Virus record (IMG/VR): IMGVR_UViG_3300035661_000009
Coordinates: 62,001-126,000 of that record
Length of the DNA stretch: 64,000 nucleotides
DNA from: a virus
Strand: one strand, 5' to 3'
Below are positions 1-18,663 of the stretch, piece after piece. How positions within the stretch are numbered: position 1 is the first letter of the stretch; every line of letters starts with the position of its first letter. A model generated the notes under the pieces. That model was not told the DNA's origin and did no database searches. It worked only from the letters and a program-made list of their open reading frames with translations. The translations under genes were made by a program, and so were the position numbers.

Positions 1-3000
1 TAAAGCTACTTGAAGTAGTACCGGTTATGGTATACGTACCAGAGATGAATCGAGTAGTGCCTGATGTATCATTATTAAGTAGAGTTATGTTATCGCCAAT
101 ACTTAAGTTATGTAGATAGGTTAACGTAGAAGGAACAAAACTTACAGTAACCGTCGTACCTACGCTATTAACTAACCCAGCAATTACTGAATAAGTTGGA
201 ATTTGAGTAACTAACCAATACTGACTACCATCTAGTCCTAATCCGGTTCTTTCTGTTCCAGAAGGTAAGGTAACATCTATTGAAGCCTTAGCATATGAAC
301 TAGTTCCGGTTCCAGATATTTGATTTTGCGTAAACGCATATGGATTGCCAGAGGTTACTGAGATCGCTTGATTGGGCGCTGTTGGGTTAACATATCTTAC
401 CTTAGCCCATTCGCCTTCTGGACCTGCTCTACCAAATCTCCATAATAGAGTTTGATTAGTAGTTAATGAATGGCTCTTGCCGCGAGCCTTCATATAAAGG
501 GCGAAGTCATTGAACAATGAAGTCGTTCCCCAGTTGGTAAATAACGAAGCTCCGGTGCCATTTTCTCTTACTTCAAATGCAGTAGCTCCGTAAGCTGCTC
601 CAGCTAGCGGAGTGATTTTTCTAAATAAGGGGATGTTATAGTTCTTGTTAAGCGGGTCGCTATCTAAAATTACATTAATTCCATCTTCAGCGCCTAATAC
701 GAAGGTATTAAGCCCTTGAATTAGGTCTCCAACTTCTGGGGTCCTTGTTCTAGCATTGGTTTCAGTTGTAGCAACACCTGATGTAATATCAGTAAGAACT
801 CGACGATCTTCACTTGCATTTCCGTATTTATTATTGGCTCCGTTCAGTGTCTTCTGAAATTGTAGAATGTTGCCGGTATTGAAGTAATTAGCGTAAAAAT
901 CGACTATAGAGGCCGTTTTAGGGGAGAAATTGACCGTATTTGACGTAGATCCGGCAATTACAGAGGTCATTAAGAACCTAGGAGTTCCGGCCTCTGAGTT
1001 ACCTGATTCTATAATAGCTAAGTGATTAGGAGAGAAAACATCTGAGCTAATAGGTAATTGTAGGTTTTGAGCAACAGTATTTGCTGTAACTAGCGTAATA
1101 TCGCCACTTAAATATGAATTTGACGATACTCGGAAATATTTAGTTCTGTATACTTCAGCTAATCCACCGACTAACTGTGTATTAAATGAAGTAGCCAATG
1201 AAGTTAATGAAGGAGCGGACCCAGCGACCACAGTAACTACTTGTGGTTGCGTAGTTGATCTAACGAACCCCAATCCTTGACTTGAAGGAAGGATTGGCCC
1301 TTCTGCGACAACGGCAGCGTTTTCTACAGTGAAGTAATCTCCAGTAACTACTTCAGTAATTCTAAATACACCAGTATTGGCGGCGTTAAATGCCGGATCC
1401 CAGATTATGGCCCAGTCACCTTTTTGAAGCTTAGTTCCAATTAATCCAGAAGCGACAGTATATCGAGCTAGTCCCGCTGCGGGGTTAGTTACAGTAACTC
1501 CAGTTGATGTAGATATATTGGGGCTTAGTAACGTAGCAGATCCATCGATAGTAAACCACCATTTAGCTGTTCCGACTAATCCAGTCGCAATTGATGAAGC
1601 GAATGCTGGAGTTTGAAGATAAGCCTTAGTATTAGGGCTGGCTACAACTAAGTTGTCGAATTGAACTAACGGATTGTTTAATTTAATTTGACCAGTATTA
1701 CGATTAAGAGTAAAATCGTTGTTTAGACCGGTAGATACGGCTCCAGCTACAAACATTGTTTTTGAAGTTAATGTCCCACCAACTATTTCGATCTTACTTC
1801 TTGAATTGCCGGTTAAGTTACTTACGATTTCTAATCTACCATTTCTGGCATATACCGTAACTCCAGCTATCTTTGAGCTAAGTACGGTAGCCCACGAAGC
1901 TAATGAGTTTTGATAACCGACGGTTGTATATCCGGTATTCAATGAAGTAAAATCTGAGTTATTTACAACAATCGTCTGTAGCGAAGTTCCGTCAACCTTA
2001 ATAGTTAATCCATCTCCATCAGCAATACCCGAATTCCAAGCATATTGATAATTACTTGGTACAAGAGCAGTTTTACCGTCTTTGTATAAGAGTACGTCGT
2101 TCTTGTATAAACGAAGAGTGTAGGCTGGATTTGTAGAGAAATTAAAAGCGGTGTTAGCGTCGCTAGCTGTTAAGCTTAAGACTTGAATATCTTCATTTAT
2201 ATCTTGTTTAGCGAACAAACTTACCTTACTTCCACCATCCGAAGTTCTTGCATTAAATAAAAGATTTGGATTTCCATTAATACTGGAAACTACTTCAAAT
2301 GCAGAAGCATTGCCAATACTATAAAAGTCGCTTGCAGCAAAAATATGAGTAGAAGTAACTCCACCAACCAAAACCGAAAGAGATGATAAATTAGAGAGCA
2401 CGAATGGCGCTGAATATCCACTTTTTACGAAAGCCTTAGCAATAGGTCGTGGGCCCGCTAGTTGGAAGATCTGCTCCCCACCAGTAGCTGAATCCATTAA
2501 GGTTTCTGTAGATACCGCACCAATAGTTTCCTCATAACCAGTACCATCGTCTATGTAGAGTTTCGCTCTATCTGATAAGGTTACTAACGAAGAACTTACT
2601 AAAGTCTTATTGTCTTGTACTGAAGTAGCGCCAAGAATAGAACTAGTTATAGATAATCCAGTGCCTTTAGTTCTTGATTGTCTTGCGTCACGCAAACGCT
2701 CACGAAAGTTATCGTCCGTTTCAGCGCCGCTTGCATTTGAGAACGGCAGAGGGTTAGTTACAGTAACTCCGGGGAATGGAGTCGATGAAATTTGTTTAAT
2801 ACTTCCAGCAGCAACGTTTCCAGTTAATCCGGGAGTTGAAGCAATTACTTCTATATTGCTTACCGAAATTTCGCCGTCAGGAATTACTGCGGTGTATAAT
2901 GTTGAAAACTTGATTGAGTCGCCTAAGGCTTGTTGAGTAGTTTGTACAATAGTTCCTAGGGGTATTTGACGAACTCCTCCTTGAGCCAAAACTATAGTTT

Positions 3001-5979: not shown

Positions 5980-6539
5980 TGACCAGTTTGAAGCTACCGA
6001 AAGATAGAAACCTATTTTTTACGAGACAAGTAACCCAAGATAGCATTGCAACTTTAACTAAAGAGCTTTTAGATATAGAAACAAACGATATTGAACTAAA
6101 GAAGCAATATGCTTATCATGAACTCACCTACACACCAAAACCGATTAATTTGTTTATAGATAGTTTTGGAGGAAGTGTATACCAAGGATTTGGAGTTATT
6201 GGCGTAATGGAGAAGCTAACTACACCCATTACTACGATAGTTACGGGGTGCGCAATGTCTTGCGGCTTTCTTATGGCAATGCATGGAAACCACAGGTTAG
6301 CATACAAACACTCGACGTTAATGTTTCATCAAATCTCTTCTGGGGTTTGGGGGAAGCTAAATGATATGGAGGCCGACGTAGAAGAAGCCAAGAGACTACA
6401 AAAGATTATCTTCAAAATGACCCTTAAGAAGACTAAGATAAGCAAAGAAACTCTTGAAAAGAACTATAAACGTAAAATTGACTGGTTTATGCCAGCAGAA
6501 GAAGCGTTGAAAAATGGCGTAATAGATGGAATAATATGA
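5979..6539 (+). CDS. clpP-like: ClpP-like serine protease
   Basis: 186 aa, typical ClpP length. Shows the family pattern: INLFIDSFGGSVYQG, then GCAMSCGFLMA with nucleophile Ser94, LMFHQ with His117, and KIDWFMPAEEAL with Asp168, so the Ser-His-Asp triad is complete. Phage ClpP homologues often serve as prohead proteases or degrade host proteins; no capsid gene is beside it here. Start chosen at ATG 5979, overlapping the previous stop, rather than an in-frame upstream codon. Confidence 0.88.
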   Translation: MTSLKLPKDRNLFFTRQVTQDSIATLTKELLDIETNDIELKKQYAYHELTYTPKPINLFIDSFGGSVYQGFGVIGVMEKLTTPITTIVTGCAMSCGFLMAMHGNHRLAYKHSTLMFHQISSGVWGKLNDMEADVEEAKRLQKIIFKMTLKKTKISKETLEKNYKRKIDWFMPAEEALKNGVIDGII

Positions 6540-6778
6540 ATAATATGAATAAAATTAATGAAATTAATGACTTACAAGAAAATTACGATGAAATTCGTAA
6601 AGAATGCTATGATTTAAACCAAAAATACAGCTTGGCTCTTCGTAGCATTAAAGACCTCATCCGCACTGGACAGGGGTTCATGGATGCTGTAAGGTCAGAC
6701 ACCAAGACAGCCTATCCGTGGGCTGGCTGGGAAATAGAAGTTGATAAGGCTATGAAGCTAATTGAGGATAATAAATGA
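6536..6778 (+). CDS. Small coiled-coil hypothetical protein
   Basis: 80 aa with a coiled N-terminal half (MNKINEINDLQENYDEIRKE), a central GQGFMD, and a W-A-G-W-E segment. ATGA overlap with clpP-like and with the following 22-codon gene. Function unknown. Confidence 0.7.
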   Translation: MNNMNKINEINDLQENYDEIRKECYDLNQKYSLALRSIKDLIRTGQGFMDAVRSDTKTAYPWAGWEIEVDKAMKLIEDNK

Positions 6779-6843
6779 TAAATGATAACGAGCTTTGGCG
6801 CGACTATGAAGAATCGGTGAACGCGAAGGAAGTAGACCATTGA
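6775..6843 (+). CDS. Very small ORF bridging two genes
   Basis: 22 aa (MINDNELWRDYEESVNAKEV...). ATGA overlap with the upstream stop, and its own TGA overlaps the TTG start of the next gene. The precise overlaps at both ends suggest it is translated, at least as a coupling peptide. Confidence 0.45.
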   Translation: MINDNELWRDYEESVNAKEVDH

Positions 6844-7268
6844 TTCCCGACATAAGCGACAGCATGATTAAAGAATGCAGTCTTGGGCACAAAAGCTTTG
6901 AGCCGAAGTGCCGTTTTTGTGAAAACGAAATAAAAATAGAAGACTTTCGTGCTGAACTCGCCCGACTCAATTCCCAAAATGCCTATCTCCGGGGGTATAT
7001 ACATACCTTGGAATGCTCGTTTGGTGAAAGTCCCGATACGGTTCACTGTCCAATAGATAGTCCATGCCTAACCTGTAAAGTTTCTAAAGAAAAAGATTCT
7101 TGGCACGCTCCTAACTTTGCTTATTGGTGCTGTTCTAATGGTAAAGGCAAGAATGGGTCAGATATCTGCACTAACGACTGCCCATATGGACATTTAAGCG
7201 GCTGCGAAGCAGTCAGCGCTTTTGTCGATGATTGCAAATCCGATCCCGACCTTATTCAGCACGACTAG
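6840..7268 (+). CDS. Cysteine-rich zinc-binding-like protein
   Basis: 142 aa from a TTG start overlapping the previous TGA. It carries many Cys/His pairs: CSLGH...CRFCE near 13-28, then CPIDSPCLTCK, WCCSNG, CTNDCPYGHLSGC. Probably binds two or more zinc ions. It ends the operon core; tandem 9-bp repeats begin right after the stop. Confidence 0.65.
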   Translation: MIPDISDSMIKECSLGHKSFEPKCRFCENEIKIEDFRAELARLNSQNAYLRGYIHTLECSFGESPDTVHCPIDSPCLTCKVSKEKDSWHAPNFAYWCCSNGKGKNGSDICTNDCPYGHLSGCEAVSAFVDDCKSDPDLIQHD

Positions 7269-7269
7269 C

Positions 7270-7325
7270 ACGACTAGCCAGCCTATGAAGCCTATGAAGC
7301 CTATGAAGATTATGATAAGCCTATG
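7270..7325 (+). repeat. Short tandem repeat (cctatgaag)
   Basis: Three perfect copies of a 9-bp unit (cctatgaag) followed by diverged copies, just before the next ATG. Also a doubled cacgactag-type unit at its left edge. Part of the window-wide tandem duplication pattern. Confidence 0.8.
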
Positions 7326-7601
7326 ATGATTTTCCTTAAAATGCGCATCGGTACAGAAATGCCCGGCCCATTGTTTAATGGGTTTATAAACAATTACCCT
7401 TCTAGTAATGTCAATGGCCATTACTTAAATGAAATTGCAGAGATTAAGCACTCATTTATACATTACCAATATTTATGGTATACGCTCGTCGGGAATTGGC
7501 CCACACCCGACGACTTAGACGACTTAGACGACTTAGACGACTTAGACCCTCTTACCGATTTTTCATGGCATCTTACCGACGAGCAGCTTACCAAACCCTA
7601 G
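7323..7601 (+). CDS. Hypothetical protein with DDL repeat
   Basis: 92 aa. Mostly hydrophobic/aromatic first half (MPGPLFNGFINNYPSSN), then an in-frame expansion of a 9-bp unit giving four copies of Asp-Asp-Leu near residues 60-73. Function unknown. The repeat keeps frame, which supports the ORF being coding. Confidence 0.55.
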   Translation: MMIFLKMRIGTEMPGPLFNGFINNYPSSNVNGHYLNEIAEIKHSFIHYQYLWYTLVGNWPTPDDLDDLDDLDDLDPLTDFSWHLTDEQLTKP

Positions 7602-7646
7602 ACAGCCAACCCTAGACAGCCAACCCTTCCCGTGGTACAATATACT

Positions 7647-7805
7647 ATGCGCATTTACATAGTCACCTACAAACCCCATGCCGACCGTTTTGGTCCCGAA
7701 GACTCTGAGATTATTGGGGTCTTTACTGACCAAACGGCCATGAACACGTTTATGGCCCTAAACCATCCGACTTACGGCGACTTACAGCGACTTATCGATA
7801 ATTGA
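7647..7805 (+). CDS. Small hypothetical protein
   Basis: 52 aa (MRIYIVTYKPHADRFGPEDS...). A TACAAT sits 5 bp before the ATG, which would allow a leaderless start. It is a compact beta-like sequence of the type seen in small phage proteins. The 3' end again contains short direct repeats (cgacttacagcgacttat). Confidence 0.55.
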   Translation: MRIYIVTYKPHADRFGPEDSEIIGVFTDQTAMNTFMALNHPTYGDLQRLIDN

Positions 7806-7886
7806 ATGGGAAACTGAAGGGAATCGTCCAGCATAACCGACATAACCGACATAACCCATGATAACCGACATAACCCGACATAACCC

Positions 7887-8123
7887 ATGACATTTATGCT
7901 TAGACAGACATCCTTATTAGGCGATCTTAGGCTTAAGATCAGGCTCTCGCCCGGCACAAAGATCTCACGTAGTTTTAGTAGGATAATTAATGTGCGTAAA
8001 CATTACTTAATAAATTCAGCAATTAAAGGAATGACGACTAATACGGTTAAATTCATGAATGGATTTCTAATAAAGGGGAATCGATGGCATTATTTCGAGA
8101 GAAGTTATATAAGTGTTATATAA
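7887..8123 (+). CDS. Possible small basic protein
   Basis: 78 aa, basic, with no recognised motif. The gene end runs into repeats of gttatataagt, so its C-terminus may have been created by repeat expansion. Coding status is uncertain. Confidence 0.35.
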   Translation: MTFMLRQTSLLGDLRLKIRLSPGTKISRSFSRIINVRKHYLINSAIKGMTTNTVKFMNGFLIKGNRWHYFERSYISVI

Positions 8124-8146
8124 GTGTTATATAAGTGTTATATAAA
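8096..8146 (+). repeat. Tandem repeat, 11-bp unit
   Basis: About four copies of gttatataagt, the last diverged. AT-rich; overlaps the end of the preceding ORF and its stop. Confidence 0.8.
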
Positions 8147-8159
8147 TATTAAAGAGTAG

Positions 8160-8399
8160 ATGATAACTATTTTTATTAGACGAACAAGCCACACCTTTGT
8201 AAATGCCTATGTTAAGACAAAAATTCAGCGTTTTCAACCACTTCAAGCTTCAAGCATAAGATATTCATATTTTGTATTTATTAATAGTAATTCAGAAATC
8301 AGAATCCGTCACCGTCAAATGAGTTTTAATACTTTAGAATTGAAAGTAAACCCAACAATGAAGGTAGTTACGTTTAATGACGCCGAGATAAGCCTATGA
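8160..8399 (+). CDS. Small basic hypothetical protein
   Basis: 79 aa (MITIFIRRTSHTFVNAYVKT...), beta-rich and basic in its first half. Its TGA overlaps the ATG of the next mini-ORF (ATGA). No known family. Confidence 0.5.
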   Translation: MITIFIRRTSHTFVNAYVKTKIQRFQPLQASSIRYSYFVFINSNSEIRIRHRQMSFNTLELKVNPTMKVVTFNDAEISL

Positions 8400-8482
8400 A
8401 GCCAAGATTTATGTTTACGACGAACAATAAAGGGCAGGGAAGAAAGTACGATAAGTGGAACCGGCTACGTAAGGCGACGTAG
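8396..8482 (+). CDS. Mini-ORF, basic peptide
   Basis: 28 aa (MKPRFMFTTNNKGQGRKYDK...), strongly basic, ATGA overlap with the gene before it. Supported only by its position and coupling. Confidence 0.35.
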   Translation: MKPRFMFTTNNKGQGRKYDKWNRLRKAT

Positions 8483-8483
8483 C

Positions 8484-8594
8484 ATGATAAAGTGCTCGCC
8501 ATCATATTTCCGAAGTTATTTCTATTGTTCTTATATTGGGGCCAAAAATATCGATGGAACCCCCAGCACAGATAGATACCCGAATAACTACTAA
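8484..8594 (+). CDS. Mini-ORF, Tyr/Ser-rich
   Basis: 36 aa (MIKCSPSYFRSYFYCSYIGA...), starting 1 bp after the preceding stop. Weak evidence: the spacing fits an operon, but composition is not informative. Confidence 0.3.
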   Translation: MIKCSPSYFRSYFYCSYIGAKNIDGTPSTDRYPNNY

Positions 8595-8607
8595 ATAACC
8601 ATTATTT

Positions 8608-9003
8608 ATGATAATATTTACATCAAAACCTCATTATGCCAGGAATAAAACCCAAATTCAATACATCGGGAGCGGCAATAGTTTTGTAGAAACCGCCATG
8701 GCCCGGTCCTTTCCAAGCACCTATATTCAAGGAACCCGGCCTCTCGACATATTATGTGCGACGTGTAACCAAAAGACCGAAAAGGCGCCATATTGCTCAA
8801 ACCCATTCCATTTAACCCATAATTTATTTATCAATAACGGTTCAGGCTTCGACGCACCGAATGTACCGAATGTACCGAATGTACCGAACGCACCGAATGT
8901 ATGGACGATGAGTGTATTGAAATATGCCCCCGATTTCTTCTATACGGCCATTATAGCGACGATCGACGACTGGACCGGTAGTAGCACCGTAAGTGGGTAT
9001 TAA
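8608..9003 (+). CDS. Hypothetical protein with NVP repeat
   Basis: 131 aa. Contains a C-x-x-C...C-x5-H cluster (LCATCNQKTEKAPYCSNPFH) that could bind one metal. It also has an in-frame Asn-Val-Pro expansion (9-bp unit) around residues 85-97. Last plus-strand gene before the convergent region. Function unknown. Confidence 0.5.
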   Translation: MIIFTSKPHYARNKTQIQYIGSGNSFVETAMARSFPSTYIQGTRPLDILCATCNQKTEKAPYCSNPFHLTHNLFINNGSGFDAPNVPNVPNVPNAPNVWTMSVLKYAPDFFYTAIIATIDDWTGSSTVSGY

Positions 9004-9371
9004 GGGGTATTAAGGGGTATTAAGGGGTATTAAGGGGTACGCGGTTTATCAAATTTTATCAAATTTTTGGGAATTTTGGGATTTTTTATTAAAATTTTTT
9101 ATTTTTAGGTACCATACCGACCATACCGACCATACCGACGCCCTATATTCCCGGTTATACTTATTATAATGTGTGGGTGTGGGTGTGGGTGTGGGTGTGG
9201 GTGTAGGTGTGGGAGTAAGTGGTGATATAAAGGCTTAATTTTTGGGAAATTTTTTTGGGTTGGTGTATCTCTGGGATAAATAGACCCTTCAGTTAGATTG
9301 TATACATAGTTTACATGGTTCGCATATTGTAAGGGGTGGGTCAATATACCCCACCCCTATTGACAATTCGA
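9004..9371. repeat. Gene-free repeat-rich convergent region
   Basis: Holds tandem repeats of attaaggggt (about 9001-9040), ccataccga (about 9112-9140) and gtgggt (about 9172-9205), AT-rich stretches and a strong hairpin. Open frames here (for example one encoding His-Pro repeats) are artefacts of the repeats. It separates the plus operon from the minus GC-rich island. Confidence 0.75.
9332..9358. terminator. Bidirectional hairpin terminator
   Basis: A perfect 9-bp stem (AGGGGTGGG / CCCACCCCT) with an 8-nt loop, placed between convergent operons. No long T run on either side, so efficiency is uncertain. Confidence 0.55.
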
Positions 9372-9440
9372 TCAATCGTCAGAATTGAAAAGAGCAGGAA
9401 TGACGATTGAGGCAATACAGGCGATCACGAGGTAGATCAC
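9372..9440 (-). CDS. 22-residue membrane peptide
   Basis: GTG start overlapping the TGA of the upstream gene; encodes a hydrophobic peptide (VIYLVIACIASIVIPALF core) with an acidic end. Too short for confident calling, but the overlap and the clean transmembrane helix are suggestive. Confidence 0.4.
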   Translation of the reverse strand: MIYLVIACIASIVIPALFNSDD

Positions 9441-9643
9441 TCGTCCTCTGACGTATCGATTTCCAGAGCGCCGTCACCTGCGATCGAAATGATGCGGGTA
9501 GGCGGAATGCCCATGGCCGCACCGATCTCCGTCTTCCGCCGATCATCGCCATCCTTCAGCCACGCCGAGATCTTCCGACGCTGATCAGGGGTGAGATCCT
9601 TCATTCCTGCCTTGCCGTTGAAGTCGCCAGAGAAATCAGCCAT
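9437..9643 (-). CDS. Small acidic protein, GC-rich island
   Basis: 68 aa (MADFSGDFNGKAGMKDLTPD...). A central K-I-S-A-W-L-K-D-G-D-D-R-R-K-T-E-I-G-A-A-M-G-I looks like a small helix-turn-helix, but this is tentative. GC-ending codons differ sharply from the surrounding AT-rich genes, suggesting different ancestry. Confidence 0.6.
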   Translation of the reverse strand: MADFSGDFNGKAGMKDLTPDQRRKISAWLKDGDDRRKTEIGAAMGIPPTRIISIAGDGALEIDTSEDE

Positions 9644-9655
9644 TGGGTTCGTCCT

Positions 9656-9692
9656 TTAGTTGAGGGTTGGTTGAGGGTTGGTTGAGGGTTGG
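9656..9692. repeat. Tandem repeat, 11-bp unit
   Basis: Three copies of ggttgagggtt directly upstream (minus sense) of the preceding gene's start. Another short repeat of gattattc lies at 9753-9780. Confidence 0.8.
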
Positions 9693-9771
9693 GTCTTTCA
9701 GTGCTGCCTCTCATTTATACAGGAATGAGAGGCAGCTTTCAAGCGCCAAATCCGATTATTCGATTATTCGA

Positions 9772-10104
9772 TTATTCGACGGAAGACGGCATGAAGAGAG
9801 CCACGGCCGTTTCCAGATCCTTGACCCGTTGCGTCAGCGCTTCGACTGCAGCCATGACTGCCATGGCCTTTGCCAGCGCGTTGGAGTCGACCGGGGGCGT
9901 GGGCGCGACCCCCGTCACCGAGTGGGCGTCCTTGCCGTCGCTCGACTGTCTTGATACCCATGGTGATGGGCGCGGGTGCGCTTCACCTTCGCTGAAATGC
10001 CACGCCCCGGTTCCCCGAGCGTAGAAGATCGGATCGCCGACCTTGATTGGGGCACCAGTCTTTGCGGAAGTCGAATTCAGCTTGGAAATCATGAGCTTTG
10101 CCAT
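9772..10104 (-). CDS. Chimeric hypothetical protein
   Basis: 110 aa: a beta N-terminal part (KVGDPIFYARGTGAWHFSEG), a linker containing SSDGKDAHSVT, then a helical C-terminus (AKAMAVMAAVEALTQRVKDLE). The linker DNA matches the start codon region plus an internal segment of the gene at 10267, joined by a deletion and read in a shifted way over the former start. GC-rich. Likely translated, but shaped by recombination. Confidence 0.55.
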   Translation of the reverse strand: MAKLMISKLNSTSAKTGAPIKVGDPIFYARGTGAWHFSEGEAHPRPSPWVSRQSSDGKDAHSVTGVAPTPPVDSNALAKAMAVMAAVEALTQRVKDLETAVALFMPSSVE

Positions 10105-10183
10105 GGCGTCTATTCCTTTGCGGGTGAACTACAACTACCACTACCACTGCAACTAGACATCCTACAGAATCAGGGAGCGAATT

Positions 10184-10215
10184 GCAACCCCTAGACGTTT
10201 ATTTCTAGGGGTTGC
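10184..10215. terminator. Perfect 12-bp inverted repeat
   Basis: GCAACCCCTAGA and its complement flank an 8-nt loop. It lies between two minus-strand genes and may end or attenuate transcription from the duplicated promoters upstream. There is no strong U tract. Confidence 0.5.
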
Positions 10216-10266
10216 TTTCAACCCTTGACCCTTGCCCTTGATTGTCGTCGATTAGGCCAGCGTCGA

Positions 10267-10497
10267 TTAGGCCAGCGCATTCAGCAGAGCGGCCGTGTCG
10301 ACCGGCGCCGAACCGTCGAGGCTCGCCCGGAACTTGTCCGCTTCGGCGCCGGTCAGCAGCACGGTCACCGAGTGGGCGTCCTTGCCGTCGCTCGACTGGC
10401 CGGTGGGGGTGACCTTCAGCAGATACGACCCGCCCGCGTTCACCAGCGAAACCGAAACCTCAGCGCGGCGGTTGCCCTTCATGATCTTGATACCCAT
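10267..10497 (-). CDS. Small GC-rich hypothetical protein
   Basis: 76 aa (MGIKIMKGNRRAEVSVSLVN...), beta-rich N-terminal half and Ala-rich helical end. Clear Shine-Dalgarno (AGGAG) before ATG. It appears to be the donor of a segment found inside the downstream gene at 9772. Function unknown. Confidence 0.65.
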   Translation of the reverse strand: MGIKIMKGNRRAEVSVSLVNAGGSYLLKVTPTGQSSDGKDAHSVTVLLTGAEADKFRASLDGSAPVDTAALLNALA

Positions 10498-10541
10498 GGT
10501 GATTCTCCTGTACTTCGTTGACTGCGTTTGACTGCGTTTGA

Positions 10542-10582
10542 CTGCGTGCTGCCTGCTCAGTATCTCATGCCTTGATGCTGCC
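10542..10582 (-). promoter_or_regulatory. Promoter copy 2 within 41-bp direct repeat
   Basis: 41 bp identical to 10697-10737. On the minus strand it carries GATACT (10559-10564) with a weak TAGACG 17 bp upstream, about 60 bp before the gene at 10497. A 10-bp tandem repeat (gtttgactgc) separates it from the ribosome binding site. Confidence 0.5.
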
Positions 10583-10696
10583 GTCTACACCCCTTCGATT
10601 CTTTTTTTGGGGTCTGCGCACCGTAGGGAAACCTTCTCCCTCTCTCCCTGCCCGCCCACCTCGCCCCGGTGTTTGCTGCGTGCTGCGCGCTGCGTG

Positions 10697-10742
10697 CTGC
10701 GTGCTGCCTGCTCAGTATCTCATGCCTTGATGCTGCCTGCAA
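10697..10742 (-). promoter_or_regulatory. Promoter copy 1 within 41-bp direct repeat
   Basis: Minus-strand TTGCAG (10737-10742), 17 bp, GATACT (10714-10719). Better -35 than copy 2. The repeat is preceded by degenerate gctgcgt copies. The -10 differs from the TAGGGT class used by other genes, in line with a different origin for this island. Confidence 0.55.
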
Positions 10743-10804
10743 GCGCCGATCGTCGTTTTCGTCGTTTTCTTTCGACGCTTAATCGCCATGACCTAGGGTT
10801 GCGT

Positions 10805-10858
10805 GGCAGTATTTGGCAGTATTTGGCAGTATTTGGCAGTATTTGGCAGTATTTGGCA
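10805..10858. repeat. Tandem repeat, 10-bp unit x5
   Basis: Five near-perfect copies of ggcagtattt. Intergenic; unit length is close to one DNA turn. Confidence 0.85.
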
Positions 10859-11161
10859 ACACTTGTTACATAAGCCTACATAAGCCTTTACATAATTCCA
10901 CTAGGGAGAAAACACTAAATTGCATTTACAAATAGCTAAGTCTTTGATATCATTAGATGTGGGTAATTGACTACATCATAATTAGTACAGAAGTATGAAC
11001 ATTTTACACCTAGGAAATATGTCTTTAAAGCTTCTTGACAAATGTATAATCTTCTTACTTAGCTAAAGTATTGATTTTATTAGTTTGTATAGTTTGTATA
11101 GTTCGCAACTAGTTTGTATCTTTTGCTTACAAACAGTGCTTTATCCCTATACAAATAATTG

Positions 11162-11549: not shown

Positions 11550-11720
11550 TTAATTACTCTGACTACCACTATAACTATAACTAACACTACCACTATAACT
11601 AACACTACCACTAACACTACCACTATTACTACCACTACCACTAAGACTACTACGCCAAAGCTTTATATACCAAGGTATTGGAGGGTAATATCTAGTAAGT
11701 CTCATAATTCTAGTTTTCAT
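11550..11720 (-). CDS. Ser-X array protein 1
   Basis: 56 aa, the shortest complete copy. Start MKTRIMRLTRYYPPIPWYIK; tail of about 15 Ser-X pairs ending GSQSN. Function unknown, as for all array members. Confidence 0.7.
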   Translation of the reverse strand: MKTRIMRLTRYYPPIPWYIKLWRSSLSGSGSNSGSVSGSVSYSGSVSYSYSGSQSN

Positions 11721-11744
11721 GATATTGGTTAGTTATTTATTTAG

Positions 11745-11999
11745 CTAATTACTCTTACTACCACTACCACTATTACTAACACTATTACTACCACTATTAC
11801 TAAAACTAACACTATAACTACCGCTATAACTACCGCTAAAACCATAACTACGACTACCACTACTACTATAACTAACACTACCGCTACCACTACGACTATA
11901 ACTATTACTACTACGCCAATGCTTCAAATACCAAGGTATTGAAGGATATGGTCTAGTAAGCCTAGTAAGTCTGGTATGTCTAGTTTTCATGGTTTTCAT
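11745..11999 (-). CDS. Ser-X array protein 2
   Basis: 84 aa. The start is duplicated (MKTMKTRHTRLTRLTR) by a 9-bp repeat; the first ATG directly follows the conserved spacer and is preferred. The tail includes F, R, V, N and Y at X positions and ends GSGSKSN. Confidence 0.7.
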   Translation of the reverse strand: MKTMKTRHTRLTRLTRPYPSIPWYLKHWRSSNSYSRSGSGSVSYSSSGSRSYGFSGSYSGSYSVSFSNSGSNSVSNSGSGSKSN

Positions 12000-12018
12000 G
12001 GTATTGGATAGTTATTAG

Positions 12019-12258
12019 TTATTTACTCTGACTACCACTACCACTAAGACTATCACTACCACTACCACTAAGATTACCACTACCACTAACACTATAACTA
12101 CCGCTAAAACCATAACTAAAACTACCACTATTACTATGACTACCACCAAAACTGCCACTACCACTAAGACTACCACTACTACGCCAATACTTTATATACC
12201 AAGGTATTGGAGGATAACGTCTAGTAAGCCTAGTAAGTCTGGTATGTCTAGTTTTCAT
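12019..12258 (-). CDS. Ser-X array protein 3
   Basis: 79 aa. MKTRHTRLTRLTRRYPPIPW start, core WYIKYWRSS, Gly-rich tail (GSFGGSHSNSGS) ending GSQSK. Confidence 0.7.
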   Translation of the reverse strand: MKTRHTRLTRLTRRYPPIPWYIKYWRSSGSLSGSGSFGGSHSNSGSFSYGFSGSYSVSGSGNLSGSGSDSLSGSGSQSK

Positions 12259-12278
12259 GGTTTTAATTAGTTATTTAG

Positions 12279-12497
12279 CTATTTACTCTGACTACCACTA
12301 CCACTATTACTAACGCTACCACTATTACTAACGCTACCACTACTACCACTATAACTACGACTACCACTATAACTATTACTATAACTATAATTACCACTAA
12401 CACTATAACTAACACTATTACGCCAATGCTTCAAATACCAAGGTATCGAAGGATGACATCTGGTAAGTCTAGTATATCTGGTAAGTCTAGTTTTCAT
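12279..12497 (-). CDS. Ser-X array protein 4
   Basis: 72 aa. MKTRLTRYTRLTRCHPSIPW start with a single Cys. The tail has a duplicated VSNSGS unit and ends GSQSK. Confidence 0.7.
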   Translation of the reverse strand: MKTRLTRYTRLTRCHPSIPWYLKHWRNSVSYSVSGNYSYSNSYSGSRSYSGSSGSVSNSGSVSNSGSGSQSK

Positions 12498-12528
12498 GGT
12501 ATTGGTTAGTTATTGGTTAGTTATTTAG

Positions 12529-12816
12529 CTATTTACTCTGACTACCGCTATAACTATTACTACCACTAAAACTATTACTACCACTAAAACTATAACTACC
12601 ACTACCACTAAGACTACCACTAAGACTACCACTCTGATTACCACTCTGATTACCACTACTACTATAACTAACACTACCACTAACACTACCACTATTACTA
12701 CCACTACCACTACTACTACCATGCCAAAACTTCATATACCAAGGTATTGGAGGATAATTTCTAACTACTCTGGTAATTCTAGTAAGCCTAGTATATCTGG
12801 TAAGTCTGGTTTTCAT
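12529..12816 (-). CDS. Ser-X array protein 5
   Basis: 95 aa. Three extra x-T-R units before V-V-R, the longest basic start in the array; core IPWYMKFWHGSS. Tail carries repeated GNQSGNQSG and FSGSNSFSGSN blocks. Confidence 0.7.
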   Translation of the reverse strand: MKTRLTRYTRLTRITRVVRNYPPIPWYMKFWHGSSSGSGSNSGSVSGSVSYSSSGNQSGNQSGSLSGSLSGSGSYSFSGSNSFSGSNSYSGSQSK

Positions 12817-12836
12817 GGTATTGGTTAGTTATTTAG

Positions 12837-13130
12837 CTATTTACTCTGACTACCACTATAACTACGACTACCGCTATCACTAAGACTACCACTATAACTA
12901 CCACTATAACTACGACTACCACTAAACCTATCACTACCACTACGACTACCACCAAGACTATAACTATAATTACCACTAAGACTATAACTATAATTACCGC
13001 TAACACTATAACCACCACTACCACTACCACTATAACTACTAGTACGCCAAAACTTCAAATACCAAGGTATTGGAGGATGATTTCTAACTACTCTAGTAAG
13101 TCTAGTAAGTCTGGTATGTCTAGTTTTCAT
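12837..13130 (-). CDS. Ser-X array protein 6
   Basis: 97 aa, the longest copy. Core HPPIPWYLKFWRTS. The tail contains a doubled GNYSYSL block and ends GSQSK. Confidence 0.7.
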   Translation of the reverse strand: MKTRHTRLTRLTRVVRNHPPIPWYLKFWRTSSYSGSGSGGYSVSGNYSYSLSGNYSYSLGGSRSGSDRFSGSRSYSGSYSGSLSDSGSRSYSGSQSK

Positions 13131-13153
13131 GGTTTTAATTAGTTATTAGATAG

Positions 13154-13408
13154 TTATTTACTACTACCACTACCACTACGACTATAACTATCACGACCAC
13201 TACCACTATAACTAACATTATAGCTATCACTACCACTATAACCACCACCACTATCACTATCACTATAACTATCACGACCACTACCACTACCACTAACACT
13301 AGAATTACCACTACCACTATAACTACTACTACGCCAAAGCTTCAAATACCAAGGTATCGAAGGGTAATATCTAACTACTCTAGTAAGTCTAGTTTTCATG
13401 GTTTTCAT
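13154..13408 (-). CDS. Ser-X array protein 7
   Basis: 84 aa. Duplicated start (MKTMKTRLTRVVR), core YPSIPWYLKLWRSS, tail rich in Asp and Arg at X positions, ending SGSSK. First full gene downstream of the promoter at 13571-13600. Confidence 0.7.
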   Translation of the reverse strand: MKTMKTRLTRVVRYYPSIPWYLKLWRSSSYSGSGNSSVSGSGSGRDSYSDSDSGGGYSGSDSYNVSYSGSGRDSYSRSGSGSSK

Positions 13409-13434
13409 GGTATTGGTTAGTTATTTATTTAGCT

Positions 13435-13560
13435 AATTACTCTGACTACCACTACCACCAAAACCACTTATTTTGTTCCCAATGTTTCTTGATTGGTTTC
13501 GGTTTCCATAAAATGGCCATTATAAAGGCCACAATTGGCTTATGAGAGCCATTGACCCCG
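13435..13560 (-). pseudogene. Rearranged 3' remnant of a Ser-X copy
   Basis: The stop-proximal codons of a copy (GFGGSGSQSN and stop) are joined to unrelated sequence. A 22-codon ORF (MAILWKPKPIKKHWEQNKW...) overlaps the join in another frame. Marks a recombination point between two array blocks. Confidence 0.5.
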
Positions 13561-13570
13561 ACCGCTCCCC

Positions 13571-13600
13571 ACCCTAGCACACTGGCGCGCGTGCCGTCAA
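13571..13600 (-). promoter_or_regulatory. Family promoter for array block 1
   Basis: Minus strand TTGACG, 18 bp (GC-rich), TAGGGT. Points at array proteins 7 to 1. Same family as the other TAGGGT promoters in the window. Confidence 0.75.
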
Positions 13601-13708
13601 GGGGTTAGAGAGCCTGCTAGGATTAAATTTATTGAGGTAAGGGCTTGACAAGTTATCGATTAAATGAAATAACCCACGCCCCTCACAGACATATTTTTAC
13701 ATTTCGTA

Positions 13709-13975
13709 TTAGCTACCAGCACCAAAACTAGTACCAAAACTACCACTACCCCTACGACTAGCACCAAAACTACCACTACCACTAAAACTAGCACCAAAAC
13801 TAGCACCAAAACTAGCACCAAAACTATAACTACCACTAAGACTACCAGTAAGACTACCACTACCACTATAACTAATACTACCATTACCACCGATACCACT
13901 ACCACTAAGACTACGCCAATAGCTTAAATGTCTAGGTATTGGAGGATACGGTCTAACTACTCTATTGATTTTCAT
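13709..13975 (-). CDS. Ser-X array protein 8 (divergent)
   Basis: 88 aa. Divergent start (MKINRVVRPYPPIPRHLSYW) in which the core Trp is Arg. The tail has an F-G-A-S tetrapeptide repeat instead of strict Ser-X and ends FGAGS. Confidence 0.65.
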   Translation of the reverse strand: MKINRVVRPYPPIPRHLSYWRSLSGSGIGGNGSISYSGSGSLTGSLSGSYSFGASFGASFGASFSGSGSFGASRRGSGSFGTSFGAGS

Positions 13976-14002
13976 GGTATTAATTAGTTATTAGTTATTT
14001 AG

Positions 14003-14245
14003 CTAATTACTCTTACTACCACTATAACTACGACTATTACTATTACTACGACTACCACTATAACTACGACTACCACTATTACTATTACTAAGACTACCAC
14101 TATAACTACGACTACCACTATAACTAAGACTAACACTATAACTAAGACTACCACTACTACTATAACTAGGCCAATAGCTTAAATACCAAGGTATTGAAGG
14201 ATACTGTCTGGTAAGTCTGGTAAATCTAGTAAGTCTAGTTTTCAT
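14003..14245 (-). CDS. Ser-X array protein 9
   Basis: 80 aa from ATG 14245, aligned with other copies; an upstream in-frame ATG reads through a spacer shared with protein 16. Core YPSIPWYLSYWPSYSSSGS. Confidence 0.7.
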   Translation of the reverse strand: MKTRLTRFTRLTRQYPSIPWYLSYWPSYSSSGSLSYSVSLSYSGSRSYSGSLSNSNSGSRSYSGSRSNSNSRSYSGSKSN

Positions 14246-14298
14246 GATATTGGTTAATGCTATTTTCGCTATTATTTGTGATCTTAACAACTAATAAC

Positions 14299-14550
14299 CT
14301 AATTATCACCATAACTATAACTACCACTATAACTAAGACTAACACTAAGACTAACACTAAGACTACCACTAACACTACCACTATAATTACCACTAAGACT
14401 ATAATTACCACTAAGACTATCACCAAAACTACCACTAAAACTATCACCAAAACTACCGCTACCACTACCACTATTACTACCACTATAACTACGCAAATAT
14501 CTTTTGGACCAAGGTCTTGGAGGATGATTTCTGGTAAGTCTAGTTTTCAT
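14299..14550 (-). CDS. Ser-X array protein 10
   Basis: 83 aa. Short basic start with core HPPRPWSKRYLRSYSGS, a variant shared with protein 20. Ends SYGDN like protein 17. Sits in a module duplicated at 16013-16563. Confidence 0.7.
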   Translation of the reverse strand: MKTRLTRNHPPRPWSKRYLRSYSGSNSGSGSGSFGDSFSGSFGDSLSGNYSLSGNYSGSVSGSLSVSLSVSLSYSGSYSYGDN

Positions 14551-14565
14551 GATATTAATTAGTTA

Positions 14566-14826
14566 TTAGTATTTACCCTGACTACCACTATAACTACGAC
14601 TATAACTACCACTACTACTAAAACTACCGCTACTACTAAAACTACCACTATGACTACCACTATAACTACGACTAAAACTACCGCTATCACTAAGACTACC
14701 ACTACGACTATAACTAAGACTACCACTACTACTATAACTACGCCAATAGCTTAAATACCAAGGTATTGAAGGATAATTCCTTGTAAGTCTAGTAAGTCTA
14801 GTATATCTGGTAAGTCTAGTTTTCAT
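14566..14826 (-). CDS. Ser-X array protein 11
   Basis: 86 aa. MKTRLTRYTRLTRLTRNYPS start, core IPWYLSYWRSYSSSGS, doubled FSSSGS in the tail, ends GSQGKY. Confidence 0.7.
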   Translation of the reverse strand: MKTRLTRYTRLTRLTRNYPSIPWYLSYWRSYSSSGSLSYSRSGSLSDSGSFSRSYSGSHSGSFSSSGSFSSSGSYSRSYSGSQGKY

Positions 14827-14858
14827 GGTATTGGTTAGTTATTTATTTAGTTATTTAG

Positions 14859-15095
14859 CTAATTACCCTTACTACCGCTACCGCTACCACTATAACTATA
14901 GCTACCACTAACACTACCGCTACGACTACCGCTAAGACTATAACTAAAACTATAACTACCACTAACACTATAACTACCACTATAACTACTACTATAACTA
15001 CTACTATAACTACTACCATGCCAAAACTTTTTATACCAAGGTATCGAAGGATGATTTCTAACTACTCTGGTAAGTCTAGTTTTCATGGTTTTCAT
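14859..15095 (-). CDS. Ser-X array protein 12
   Basis: 78 aa. Duplicated start (MKTMKTRLTRVVR), core HPSIPWYKKFWHGSS, then a triple YSSS unit before the Ser-X tail, ends GSKGN. Confidence 0.7.
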   Translation of the reverse strand: MKTMKTRLTRVVRNHPSIPWYKKFWHGSSYSSSYSSSYSGSYSVSGSYSFSYSLSGSRSGSVSGSYSYSGSGSGSKGN

Positions 15096-15114
15096 GATAT
15101 TGGTTAGTTATTAG

Positions 15115-15372
15115 TTAATTACCCTGACTACCACTAAGACTATAACCAGTACTACGACTAACACTATAACTAAGACTACTACTAAGACTAGTACTAAGAC
15201 TACCACTATCACTAACACTACCGCTATAACTAACACTAAAACTATCACTACCACTAAAACTATAATTACCACTATAATTATAACTAAGACTACGACTATA
15301 ACTACGCCAATAGCTTAAATACCAAGGTATCGAAGGATAATGTCTGGTAAGTCTAGTGAGTCTAGTTTTCAT
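15115..15372 (-). CDS. Ser-X array protein 13
   Basis: 85 aa. Core YPSIPWYLSYWRSYSRS. The tail includes Thr (LSTSLSSS) and ends GSQGN. Confidence 0.7.
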   Translation of the reverse strand: MKTRLTRLTRHYPSIPWYLSYWRSYSRSLSYNYSGNYSFSGSDSFSVSYSGSVSDSGSLSTSLSSSLSYSVSRSTGYSLSGSQGN

Positions 15373-15387
15373 GATATTAATTAGTTA

Positions 15388-15654
15388 TTAGTATTTACCC
15401 TGACTACCACTATTACTAAAACTACCACTATTACTAAAACTACCACTATTACTAAAACTACCACTATAACTAACACTACCGCTATGACTACCACTATAAC
15501 TAAGACTAACACTAAGACTACCACTAAGACTACCGCTACCACTATAACTAACACTATAATTATCACTATTACTACTACGCCAAAACTTTATATACCAAGG
15601 TCTTGAAGGATATGGTCTAACTACTCTAGTGAGTCTAGTAAATCTAGTTTTCAT
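15388..15654 (-). CDS. Ser-X array protein 14
   Basis: 88 aa. Core YPSRPWYIKFWRSS; the tail ends with three copies of GSFSNS, a clear 18-bp expansion, then GSQGKY. Confidence 0.7.
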   Translation of the reverse strand: MKTRFTRLTRVVRPYPSRPWYIKFWRSSNSDNYSVSYSGSGSLSGSLSVSLSYSGSHSGSVSYSGSFSNSGSFSNSGSFSNSGSQGKY

Positions 15655-15698
15655 GGTATTGGATAGTTATTTATTTAGTTATTTATTTAGTTATTTAG

Positions 15699-15980
15699 TT
15701 ATTTACTCTGACTACCACTAAAACTAAGACTAAAACTAAGACTATCACTAACACTACCGCTACCACTATTATTACGACTACCACTATTACTACCACTATT
15801 ACTACCACTATTACTACCACTATAACTAAGACTACCGCTATAACTACGATTATAACTACCACTACCACTAACACTAAACCTATAACTAAGACTACTACTA
15901 AGACTACTAGTATGCCAAAACTTCAAATACCAAGGTATTGGAGGATGATGTCTGGTAAGTCTCATAATTCTGGTTTTCAT
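15699..15980 (-). CDS. Ser-X array protein 15
   Basis: 93 aa. Start MKTRIMRLTRHHPPIPWYLK, close to protein 1. The tail holds three GSNS units and ends GSQSK. Confidence 0.7.
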   Translation of the reverse strand: MKTRIMRLTRHHPPIPWYLKFWHTSSLSSSLSYRFSVSGSGSYNRSYSGSLSYSGSNSGSNSGSNSGSRNNSGSGSVSDSLSFSLSFSGSQSK

Positions 15981-16012
15981 GGTATTGGATAGTTATTTAT
16001 TTAGCTAATTAG

Positions 16013-16231
16013 CTAATTACCCTTACTACCACTATAACTAAAACTATAATTACCAGTACCACTATAACTATAACTACCACTAACACTATGACCACCACCA
16101 CTATAACTAACACTATTACTAACACTATTACTAACACTATAACTACCGCTACCACTATAACTACTACTACGCCAAAGCTTTATATACCAAGGTATCGAAG
16201 GATAATGTCTAACAATTCTATTGGGTTTCAT
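16013..16231 (-). CDS. Ser-X array protein 16
   Basis: 72 aa from ATG 16231 (MKPNRIVRHYPSIPWYIKLW), a start variant lacking T-R units. The upstream spacer is nearly identical to that of protein 9. Tail has a triple SVSN unit. Confidence 0.7.
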   Translation of the reverse strand: MKPNRIVRHYPSIPWYIKLWRSSSYSGSGSYSVSNSVSNSVSYSGGGHSVSGSYSYSGTGNYSFSYSGSKGN

Positions 16232-16284
16232 TGTATTGGTTAATGCTATTTTCGCTATTATTTGCGATCTTAACAACTAATAAC

Positions 16285-16563
16285 CTAATTATCGCCATAA
16301 CTACCACTACCGCTACCACTACCGCTAATACTAAGACTATAACTACCGCTACCACTAAAACTACCGCTACCACTAAAACTACCGCTACCACTATCGCTAT
16401 AACTATCACTAACACTACGACTATAACTACTACTACCACTATCACTACCACTATAACTACCACTACCACTACTACTAAAACTACCGCTACCACTACTACT
16501 ACGCCAAAACTTCATATACCAAGGTATTGGAGGATAATTTCTAACTACTCTATTGGTTTTCAT
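16285..16563 (-). CDS. Ser-X array protein 17
   Basis: 92 aa. Start MKTNRVVRNYPPIPWYMKFW; GSFS/GSGS blocks; ends SYGDN like protein 10. First copy to use several TTT (Phe) and AGC (Ser) variants. Confidence 0.7.
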   Translation of the reverse strand: MKTNRVVRNYPPIPWYMKFWRSSSGSGSFSSSGSGSYSGSDSGSSSYSRSVSDSYSDSGSGSFSGSGSFSGSGSYSLSISGSGSGSGSYGDN

Positions 16564-16575
16564 GGTATTGGTTAG

Positions 16576-16800
16576 TTATTTACTCTGACTACCACTACGA
16601 CTAACACTATAACTACGACTACCACTAACACTACCACTATCACTATAACTAAGACTATAACTAGCACTAACACTACCACTAACACTAGCACTACGACTAC
16701 GACTACCACTATCACTAAGACTACTACTATGCCAAAACTTTATGGGCCAAGGTATTGAAGGATATGGTCTAACTACTCTGGCAACTTTATTGGGTTTCAT
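16576..16800 (-). CDS. Ser-X array protein 18
   Basis: 74 aa. Start MKPNKVARVVRPYPSIPWPI; the tail includes Ala at X (RSASVSGSVSASYS) and ends GSQSK. Upstream-most copy of array block 2. Confidence 0.7.
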   Translation of the reverse strand: MKPNKVARVVRPYPSIPWPIKFWHSSSLSDSGSRSRSASVSGSVSASYSLSYSDSGSVSGSRSYSVSRSGSQSK

Positions 16801-16850
16801 AGTTTCATAGTTTTATGTGTTTATGTGTTTTATGGATTTTGTAAACACAA

Positions 16851-16883
16851 ATAGCCACTACAACAATTAGCTGTAGTGGCTAT
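16851..16883 (-). terminator. Hairpin terminator
   Basis: Perfect 12-bp stem (ATAGCCACTACA) with a 9-nt loop, followed on the minus strand by TTGTGTTT. It lies just past the 16933 gene and before array block 2, so block 2 may need its own transcription or readthrough. Confidence 0.7.
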
Positions 16884-16932
16884 CAGCTTGCGACTTAATG
16901 CTTGTTACTTAATGCTTGTTACTTATTACTTA

Positions 16933-17214
16933 TTACTTCATTCGGTGAAGGACGGTGCCACCACGATCAATAATCATTTCTTCGGCGCCTTCATGCTTTT
17001 CCACGCGCTTGCCCTTGCCAGCGTAGAAATCCTTGTAATTGCCGGTTTCATAAACCGTGGCAGTATCCTTAAAAACGAAAACAGTTCCGGTCAGGGCAAC
17101 CAGCGTACCAATATACTGATACGTAGGAGTGCGGATATGATACTTCGCACCCTCAACAAAAATACCCATCTGGAGTTCACTATCAGCAACAACATCACGC
17201 ATTTCGTTGGACAT
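16933..17214 (-). CDS. Small beta-rich protein, paralogue of 39304 gene
   Basis: 93 aa. Aligns with the protein at 39304-39603 along most of its length (G-I/L-F-V-x-G-x-K/R-Y-x-I-x-T-x-T-Y-x-Y and a V-x-E-T-G motif). Higher GC than the array around it. It is inserted between array blocks and followed by its own terminator. Function unknown; the pattern suggests a small beta-barrel. Confidence 0.65.
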   Translation of the reverse strand: MSNEMRDVVADSELQMGIFVEGAKYHIRTPTYQYIGTLVALTGTVFVFKDTATVYETGNYKDFYAGKGKRVEKHEGAEEMIIDRGGTVLHRMK

Positions 17215-17257
17215 ATTTTCTTTCGGGTTAAGAGTGAAGAATTAAAGAATTAAAGGG

Positions 17258-17470
17258 TTATTTACTCTGACTACCACTACGACTATAACTAGAACTACGA
17301 CTACCACTACCGCTACTACTACCACTAAACCTATCACTACCACTAAAACTAAGACTAAAACTACTACTACCACTATCACTAACACTAAGACTACCGCTAC
17401 GCCAAAACTTCAAATACCAAGGTATCGAAGGATGATTTCTAACTACTTTGGCAACTTTATTGGGTTTCAT
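17258..17470 (-). CDS. Ser-X array protein 19
   Basis: 70 aa. Start MKPNKVAKVVRNHPSIPWYL, closest to protein 18 across the intervening gene. Tail with SSS runs, ends GSQSK. Driven by the promoter at 17596-17624. Confidence 0.7.
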   Translation of the reverse strand: MKPNKVAKVVRNHPSIPWYLKFWRSGSLSVSDSGSSSFSLSFSGSDRFSGSSSGSGSRSSSYSRSGSQSK

Positions 17471-17482
17471 GGGCTAATTTGC

Positions 17483-17539
17483 CTAATTGATGATATAATT
17501 CAATGCCTGATTTACGCTCTTTTCAAGGTCAGAACCCAT
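17483..17539 (-). CDS. Mini-ORF before array protein 19
   Basis: 18 aa (MGSDLEKSVNQALNYIIN) with GAGG about 10 bp upstream of ATG and only 12 bp to the next start. Could be a leader peptide; weak support. Confidence 0.3.
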   Translation of the reverse strand: MGSDLEKSVNQALNYIIN

Positions 17540-17595
17540 TGCTTTATTGCCTCGTTTGCGGACTACTTAGAGGGTTGGGGTGTGCGACCTGCCTC

Positions 17596-17624
17596 ACCCT
17601 ATCACGGGCGATCTGTAGCGTCAA
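17596..17624 (-). promoter_or_regulatory. Family promoter
   Basis: Minus strand TTGACG, 17 bp, TAGGGT. Just upstream, cgtcaagcgac is tandemly repeated about three times, so the -35 hexamer itself has been multiplied. Confidence 0.75.
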
Positions 17625-17674
17625 GCGACCGTCAAGCGACCGTCAAGCGACCGACGACGGTCAAGCGGTTGCGG

Positions 17675-17839
17675 TTATATACAGCGACATTGGCCAATAA
17701 TTGTTACGTTTCCCATACCCATTTCATGGCAACGCTTATTACAAATATCCTGTGAAGCGGAATAATGATAAATGCTCCAAAGAAAGGCAGACGAGAACGA
17801 AACGAGCACGGTCAAACAAATAACACCAAAAATCTTCAT
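17675..17839 (-). CDS. Small exported or membrane-anchored Cys protein
   Basis: 54 aa. N-terminal signal/anchor (MKIFGVICLTVLVSFSSAFL), then SQDICNKRCHEMG and a CRC end. AAAGG lies 8-9 bp before ATG. The C-x3-C pattern resembles that of the exported proteins at 49346 and 55097. Function unknown. Confidence 0.55.
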   Translation of the reverse strand: MKIFGVICLTVLVSFSSAFLWSIYHYSASQDICNKRCHEMGMGNVTIIGQCRCI

Positions 17840-17880
17840 ATCAAGCCTTTTCAGTTAAATTAAAGAGTTAAATTAAAGAG

Positions 17881-18102
17881 TTAATCATCCTGACTACCAC
17901 TAAGACTATTACTACCACTAAAACTACCGCTATAACTATCACTATAACTAAGACTATCACTACCACTATCGCTAACACTAAGACTATCACTACCGCTATA
18001 ACTAAGACTATCACTACGACTACCACTATAACTACGCAAATATCTTTTGGACCAAGGTATTGAAGGATAATGTCTGGTAAGTCTGGTATGTCTAGTTTTC
18101 AT
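17881..18102 (-). CDS. Ser-X array protein 20
   Basis: 73 aa. Start MKTRHTRLTRHYPSIPWSKR, core like protein 10. Tail rich in Asp and Leu at X, ends GSQDD. Confidence 0.7.
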   Translation of the reverse strand: MKTRHTRLTRHYPSIPWSKRYLRSYSGSRSDSLSYSGSDSLSVSDSGSDSLSYSDSYSGSFSGSNSLSGSQDD

Positions 18103-18123
18103 GATATTGGTTAGTTATTTACT

Positions 18124-18354
18124 CTAACTACTACGACTACCGCTACCACTAAAACCATAACTATAATTACCACTAAAACTATAATTACCGCTATCGCTAA
18201 CACTATCACTATCACTACCACTATAACTAAGACTAACACTATCACTACCACTATGACTAACAGTATAACTATCACTATCACTACTACGCCAATACTTTAT
18301 ATACCAAGGTCTTGGAGGATGATTTCTAGTAAGTCTAGTAAGTCTAGTTTTCAT
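18124..18354 (-). CDS. Ser-X array protein 21
   Basis: 76 aa. Core HPPRPWYIKYWRSS; Asp-rich tail with two GNYSF/GNYSY blocks, ends GSRSS. Confidence 0.7.
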   Translation of the reverse strand: MKTRLTRLTRNHPPRPWYIKYWRSSDSDSYTVSHSGSDSVSLSYSGSDSDSVSDSGNYSFSGNYSYGFSGSGSRSS

Positions 18355-18387
18355 GGTATTGGATAGTTATTTAGTTATTTATTTACT

Positions 18388-18630: not shown

Positions 18631-18663
18631 GGTATTGGATAGTTATTTAGTTATTTATTTACT

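What the first reader, a model, noticed from the sequence alone, without database searches (positions are those of the whole stretch)
9437..10497. GC-rich island with a recombination scar
Three small genes use GC-ending codons unlike the AT-rich genome. Gene 9772 contains the start region of gene 10267 (ATGGGTATCAAGA) joined directly to an internal segment (cagtcgagcgacggcaagga), with the part between deleted, then read in a different frame at the former start.
Basis: seen in the sequence. Interest (0 to 1): 0.6.

Follow-up and report, generated by a model that had tools for sequence, protein, structure and literature searches.

The report
Spliced gene fragment inside phage neighbour gene
In a large bacterial virus, one small gene carries an exact 54-letter patch stitched together from two pieces of the gene next door, and it lies in a stretch of the genome unusually full of short copied segments; it is a clear trace of ordinary but rarely visible cut-and-paste gene evolution.

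Summary
Gene A (9772-10104, minus strand) contains 54 nt (9967-9914) identical to two pieces of gene B (10267-10497, minus): 19 nt spanning B's start codon (10503-10485) and 35 nt from its middle (10398-10364). They abut with no overlap; the 86 nt between them in B are missing. Shuffles give shared words of at most 12 nt; the real ones are 35 and 19.

Direction is B to A. In B the 19 nt are a translation start behind a Shine-Dalgarno sequence; in A they are read out of frame, with 1 of 7 codons GC-ending (rest of A: 72%). The patch is 18 codons, so A stays open. A full 140-nt donor copy would break it.

The three genes are compositionally foreign (GC3 0.68-0.88; genome median 0.37). No homologue was found, so their origin is unknown.

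The island lies in a 4.6-kb zone with 24 perfect short tandem arrays (about 5 per kb), against 0.1-0.2 per kb in two sampled stretches of the same genome and at most 0.05 in Mx1, T4 and phiKZ. Arrays inside genes all have period 9. Best reading: illegitimate recombination or template switching in a duplication-prone zone, filtered by selection for frame. Ordinary in kind, unusually legible.

The parts
10267..10497 (-). Gene B, donor: 76-aa orphan protein, predicted four strands and two helices
   Evidence: ORF; GC3 0.88; SD AGGAG before ATG; single-sequence model pLDDT 72; no significant fold match
9772..10104 (-). Gene A, recipient: 110-aa orphan protein; low-confidence N-terminal part, patch in a Pro-rich linker, C-terminal helix 74-104
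   Evidence: ORF; GC3 0.71; model
9437..9643 (-). Third GC-rich small gene (68 aa), not involved in the scar
   Evidence: ORF; GC3 0.68; no relative
9949..9967 (-). Patch block 1: 19-nt copy of the start region of gene B, out of frame in gene A
9914..9948 (-). Patch block 2: 35-nt copy of the middle of gene B, in its native frame
10485..10503 (-). Donor of block 1 (starts 6 nt before the ATG, after the SD sequence)
10364..10398 (-). Donor of block 2
10399..10484 (-). 86 nt of gene B skipped in the patch
10542..10582 (.). 41-nt perfect non-tandem duplication, copy 1, upstream of gene B
   Evidence: D2
10697..10737 (.). 41-nt perfect non-tandem duplication, copy 2
   Evidence: D2
6529..11103 (.). 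Zone with 24 perfect short tandem arrays (period 6-15), about 5 per kb

Best explanation
Gene A received a 54-nt templated patch from its neighbour gene B, about 450 bp away and in the same orientation. Either a replication or repair intermediate switched onto B, copied 19 nt, jumped 86 nt and copied 35 nt before returning; or a 140-nt copy of B's 5' part was inserted first and 86 nt were later lost. The two-step route passes through a frameshifted gene A, and the deletion would restore the frame. The patch landed in a linker, kept the frame, left B intact and so survived. It is one non-tandem product of a local zone where short duplications, mostly tandem, accumulate. Shown: the copy, its blocks, direction, frame, and the array density of the zone. 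Inferred: the mechanism (illegitimate recombination or template switching), the linker role, and that the patch and the arrays share a cause.
For: Exact 19 + 35 nt blocks, contiguous in A and 86 nt apart in B, far beyond chance. Direction: in B, block 1 is the SD-spaced start; in A it is out of frame with GC3 1/7 against 0.72 for the rest of A (binomial P 0.003), while block 2 has GC3 11/11. Frame: 54 = 18 codons; removing the patch leaves A open, inserting the whole 140 nt closes it at once. Context: 24 perfect tandem arrays in 4.6 kb, against 26 in 43.5 kb of the rest of the window (P about 3e-12, naive test) and 6 in 40 kb elsewhere in the genome; T4 and phiKZ 0.02 per kb, Mx1 0.05. The three arrays wholly inside genes all have period 9. 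Another 41-nt perfect non-tandem duplication lies upstream of B.
Against: No strain without the patch was found, so the event is inferred from one metagenome-derived sequence. The internal junction has no microhomology, which fits end joining better than simple slippage, so the tie to the tandem arrays is only circumstantial. The donor and the patch do not fold into a hairpin better than shuffles. The array zone was delimited after seeing it, so its P value is optimistic.
Confidence: 0.78

Rival explanations
1. Assembly or amplification artefact: a chimeric read or an amplification template switch put pieces of B into A in the contig only.
For: The sequence is a metagenome virus record known from one assembly, and chimeras can join pieces without homology; no independent copy of the locus was found.
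Against: Gene A stays in frame through both edges; a random patch has about a 1 in 3 chance of that, times the chance of meeting no stop. Codon bias continues on both sides of the patch. The 19/35 junction has no overlap that an assembler could use, and gene B is intact 450 bp away in the same contig.
Confidence: 0.1
2. Small mobile unit: the 54 nt (or the 140-nt donor) moves as an element, since both begin (A)TCACC and end GGTGA(C), a 5-bp inverted repeat.
For: Inverted TCACC/GGTGA at both ends of donor and copy (seen in the sequences).
Against: Five bp at free ends is weak. There is no flush target duplication (the nearest direct repeat, CGCGCCCA at 9974-9967 and 9907-9900, is not flush on the right, and removing that 67-nt span would shift the frame). 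No further copy exists in the record or in other IMG/VR contigs. Donor and copy differ by 86 nt.
Confidence: 0.03
3. Old paralogy: A and B are diverged duplicates and the blocks are what is left.
For: A weak collinear similarity follows the patch (PVD..NALA in both proteins).
Against: That similarity is not significant (82 of 500 shuffles score as high) and the upstream flanks do not match (271 of 300 shuffles score as high), while the blocks are 100% identical. Block 1 is in different frames.
Confidence: 0.04
4. About the zone rather than the scar: it is not more mutable; it only tolerates duplications because its small orphan genes are under weak selection.
For: Most of the 24 arrays are intergenic or at gene ends, and those inside genes all have period 9.
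Against: Other small-gene parts of the window (19-31, 33-46 and 46-64 kb) have only 0.4-0.75 arrays per kb.
Confidence: 0.45

Closest known systems
Short-range template switching (Walker et al. 2021, PMC7954356)
   Same: A short stretch is copied from a nearby template into a new place, leaving a patch explained by one or two jumps.
   Different: That work is on ape genomes, where ancestors are known; here there is no ancestor sequence and the donor is about 450 bp away.
Composite (mosaic) genes of viruses (Jachiet et al. 2014, PMC4202312)
   Same: A gene is assembled from segments of unrelated genes.
   Different: Here the donor is the neighbour, the fragment is only 54 nt, and it is itself an internal-deletion product.
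Myxococcus phage Mx1 (PMC10720576), nearest named relative of this phage
   Same: Large tailed phage; baseplate protein 38% identical over 95%; many tRNA genes.
   Different: Mx1 has 55.5% GC (window 39%), lacks recognisable copies of the three genes, and has 0.05 short arrays per kb in the part examined.

Membership tests
Composite gene formed by illegitimate recombination or template switch | Segment identical at DNA level to another gene, with abrupt ends | tested here: met
Composite gene formed by illegitimate recombination or template switch | Donor and direction identifiable | tested here: met
   Start signal and frame in B, off-frame codons in A
Composite gene formed by illegitimate recombination or template switch | Ancestral state without the patch seen in a relative | tested here: inconclusive
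   No relative carrying the locus was found
Template switching with microhomology (slippage-like) | Microhomology at the internal junction | tested here: not met
   0 nt overlap at the 19/35 junction; end joining, or a switch without homology, stays open
Mobile element insertion | Target-site duplication flush with the insert, more than one copy | tested here: not met
Horizontally acquired (host-derived) island | Deviant composition | tested here: met
Horizontally acquired (host-derived) island | Homologues in hosts or other elements | tested here: inconclusive
   None found for the proteins tested in genome contigs, plasmids, phages or viral contigs, but the genome scans use short peptide patterns and find close relatives only; gene 9437 was not scanned against genomes

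The most novel reading that the evidence does not exclude
This phage has a confined zone, roughly window 6.5-19 kb, in which short segments are duplicated at an unusually high rate. It makes new tandem arrays, a row of at least 16 paralogous Ser-rich genes, and spliced patches such as this one, so that new small genes are assembled locally. Some phage-encoded or structural cause would drive it.
Probability: 0.2. Interest if true: 0.65.

Novelty: new member of a known kind. Interest (0 to 1): 0.36.

Why it matters
Phage genomes are full of small orphan genes of unknown origin. Here a single step in the making of one can be read directly: donor, recipient, direction, frame effect and the missing piece are all in one kilobase. 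If the surrounding zone really duplicates DNA faster than the rest of the genome, it would be a place where the birth of phage genes can be measured.

Tried and rejected
Collinear PVD..NALA similarity after the patch as a third block: not significant. Hairpin of the donor or of the patch as cause of the jump: no better than shuffles. Homologues of the proteins by tblastn in phages and plasmids, IMG/VR, GTDB contigs, Pfam, PHROGs: none. The two hits in the Mx1 stretch have E 0.2-0.4 and are noise. Fold search of gene B: best E 0.05 (viral) and 0.25 (PDB, PUR-alpha repeats), TM-scores mostly below 0.5, so a PUR/Whirly/PC4-like nucleic-acid-binding fold is only a lead. A strain without the patch by 20-mer scan: none. 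The hit of the Ser-rich family in L010 is an 11-residue coincidence.

Full report
The window is positions 62,001-126,000 of a 160,015-bp virus record. Its baseplate protein is 38% identical over 95% of its length to that of Myxococcus phage Mx1, and 38% to one in an IMG/VR contig, so it is a large tailed phage distantly related to Mx1. The window has 39% GC; the Mx1 genome has 55.5% and its host M. xanthus 68.8% (PMC10720576). The host of this phage is not known.

Observation. The three minus-strand ORFs 9437-9643, 9772-10104 and 10267-10497 are open, with AAGGA or AGGAG upstream. GC3 is 0.68, 0.71 and 0.88, against a median of 0.37 and a maximum of 0.56 in 78 other ORFs. Between genes 9772 (A) and 10267 (B) there are two long exact matches: 19 nt (9967-9949 and 10503-10485) and 35 nt (9948-9914 and 10398-10364). 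They are adjacent in A and 86 nt apart in B. Dinucleotide shuffles of the two genes share at most 12 nt (200 shuffles). Outside the paralogue arrays and plain tandem arrays, this pair and a 41-nt repeat just upstream of B (10542-10582 and 10697-10737) are the clearest local non-tandem repeats of the window.

Direction. In B the 19 nt hold the spacer and start codon behind AGGAG, and ATG GGT ATC AAG opens the protein. In A the copy starts just after the SD sequence, and the same bases are read in another frame as CCA TCA CCA TGG GTA TCA AGA: 1 of 7 codons ends in G or C, against 72% in the rest of A (P 0.003). The 35-nt block is read in its native frame, 11 of 11 GC-ending. So B is the donor. 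The copied ATG opens a 65-aa out-of-frame ORF (9961-9764), but its SD sequence was not copied, so it is probably silent (inference).

Frame. The patch is 54 nt, 18 codons. Without it gene A reads ...EGEAHPRPGVAPTPPVDS... and stays open, so the site is a Pro-rich linker; with the whole 140-nt donor stretch it would stop at once. Both 140 and 86 are 2 modulo 3, so an 86-nt loss after a 140-nt insertion would restore the frame. One-step and two-step routes cannot be separated here. The single-sequence model of A places the patch in a low-confidence stretch before a confident helix (residues 74-104), and B as four strands and two helices; both models lack an alignment and are weak evidence.

Mechanism. 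The junction of the two blocks has no shared base, so simple slippage between repeats does not explain it. Neither donor nor patch folds better than shuffles. A template switch with two jumps, or joining of fragments, remains. No flush target duplication and no further copies argue against a mobile unit. An assembly or amplification chimera cannot be excluded without reads, but the preserved frame and codon bias on both sides speak against it.

Setting. From 6.5 to 11.1 kb there are 24 perfect short tandem arrays with unrelated units, about 5 per kb. The rest of the window outside the paralogue arrays has 0.4-0.75 per kb beyond 19 kb and none in the first 4 kb; two other 20-kb stretches of the genome have 0.1 and 0.2, Mx1 0.05, the IMG/VR relative 0.045, T4 and phiKZ 0.02; second-order Markov sequences give 0 to 0.03. 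The three arrays wholly within genes have period 9; arrays between genes or at gene ends have periods of 6 to 15. That is what duplication filtered by frame would leave, and the in-frame patch fits the same filter. Next to the island, 11.5-18.9 kb, lies a row of at least 16 paralogous genes. Whether the zone is more mutable or only more tolerant is open.

Origin of the island. No homologue of the proteins was found in any collection tried. The genome scans rest on short peptide patterns and reach close relatives only, and gene 9437 was not scanned against genomes, so a GC-rich host or another phage as source is plausible but not shown.

Verdict. As a kind of event it is known; its legibility and its setting in a duplication-rich zone give it moderate interest.

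Noticed in passing
11550-18885 and 31137-31394, minus strand: At least 16 paralogous small genes in a row (one more at 31 kb) with head MKTRLTR..YP(P/S)IPWYLKxWR and a Ser-Gly-rich tail from ACTACC-type repeats; repeat period about 268-288 bp. No PHROG match for two members and no relative in IMG/VR beyond an 11-residue coincidence.
   Followed up: partly
6529-11103: 24 perfect tandem arrays of unrelated 6-15-bp units in 4.6 kb, far denser than elsewhere in this genome or in other phages examined.
   Followed up: partly
22899, 28453, 30192, 38516, 43986, 46054: Dispersed repeat around CAACCCTACCACGGTCGGTTTCCGGTTGCAAGGG, up to 40 nt identical, in at least six places; possibly a shared regulatory signal.
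   Followed up: no
19803, 24781, 41189: Second dispersed repeat, ACCCTATCACACCCGGTTTCCGCTTGCAACACCCC, 35 nt identical in two places and 18-22 nt in a third.
   Followed up: no
10184-10215 and about 9703-9736: Perfect stem-loops after genes 10267 and 9772, each preceded by TTGAAAGC on the minus strand and without a T run; a possible shared 3' signal.
   Followed up: no
41063-41166: Long perfect array of an 11-bp unit (AACCACTGCTC).
   Followed up: no
L007 10393-12800: Several 16-47-nt repeats within 2.4 kb of another part of the genome (130-150 kb), suggesting a repetitive or recently shuffled gene there.
   Followed up: no
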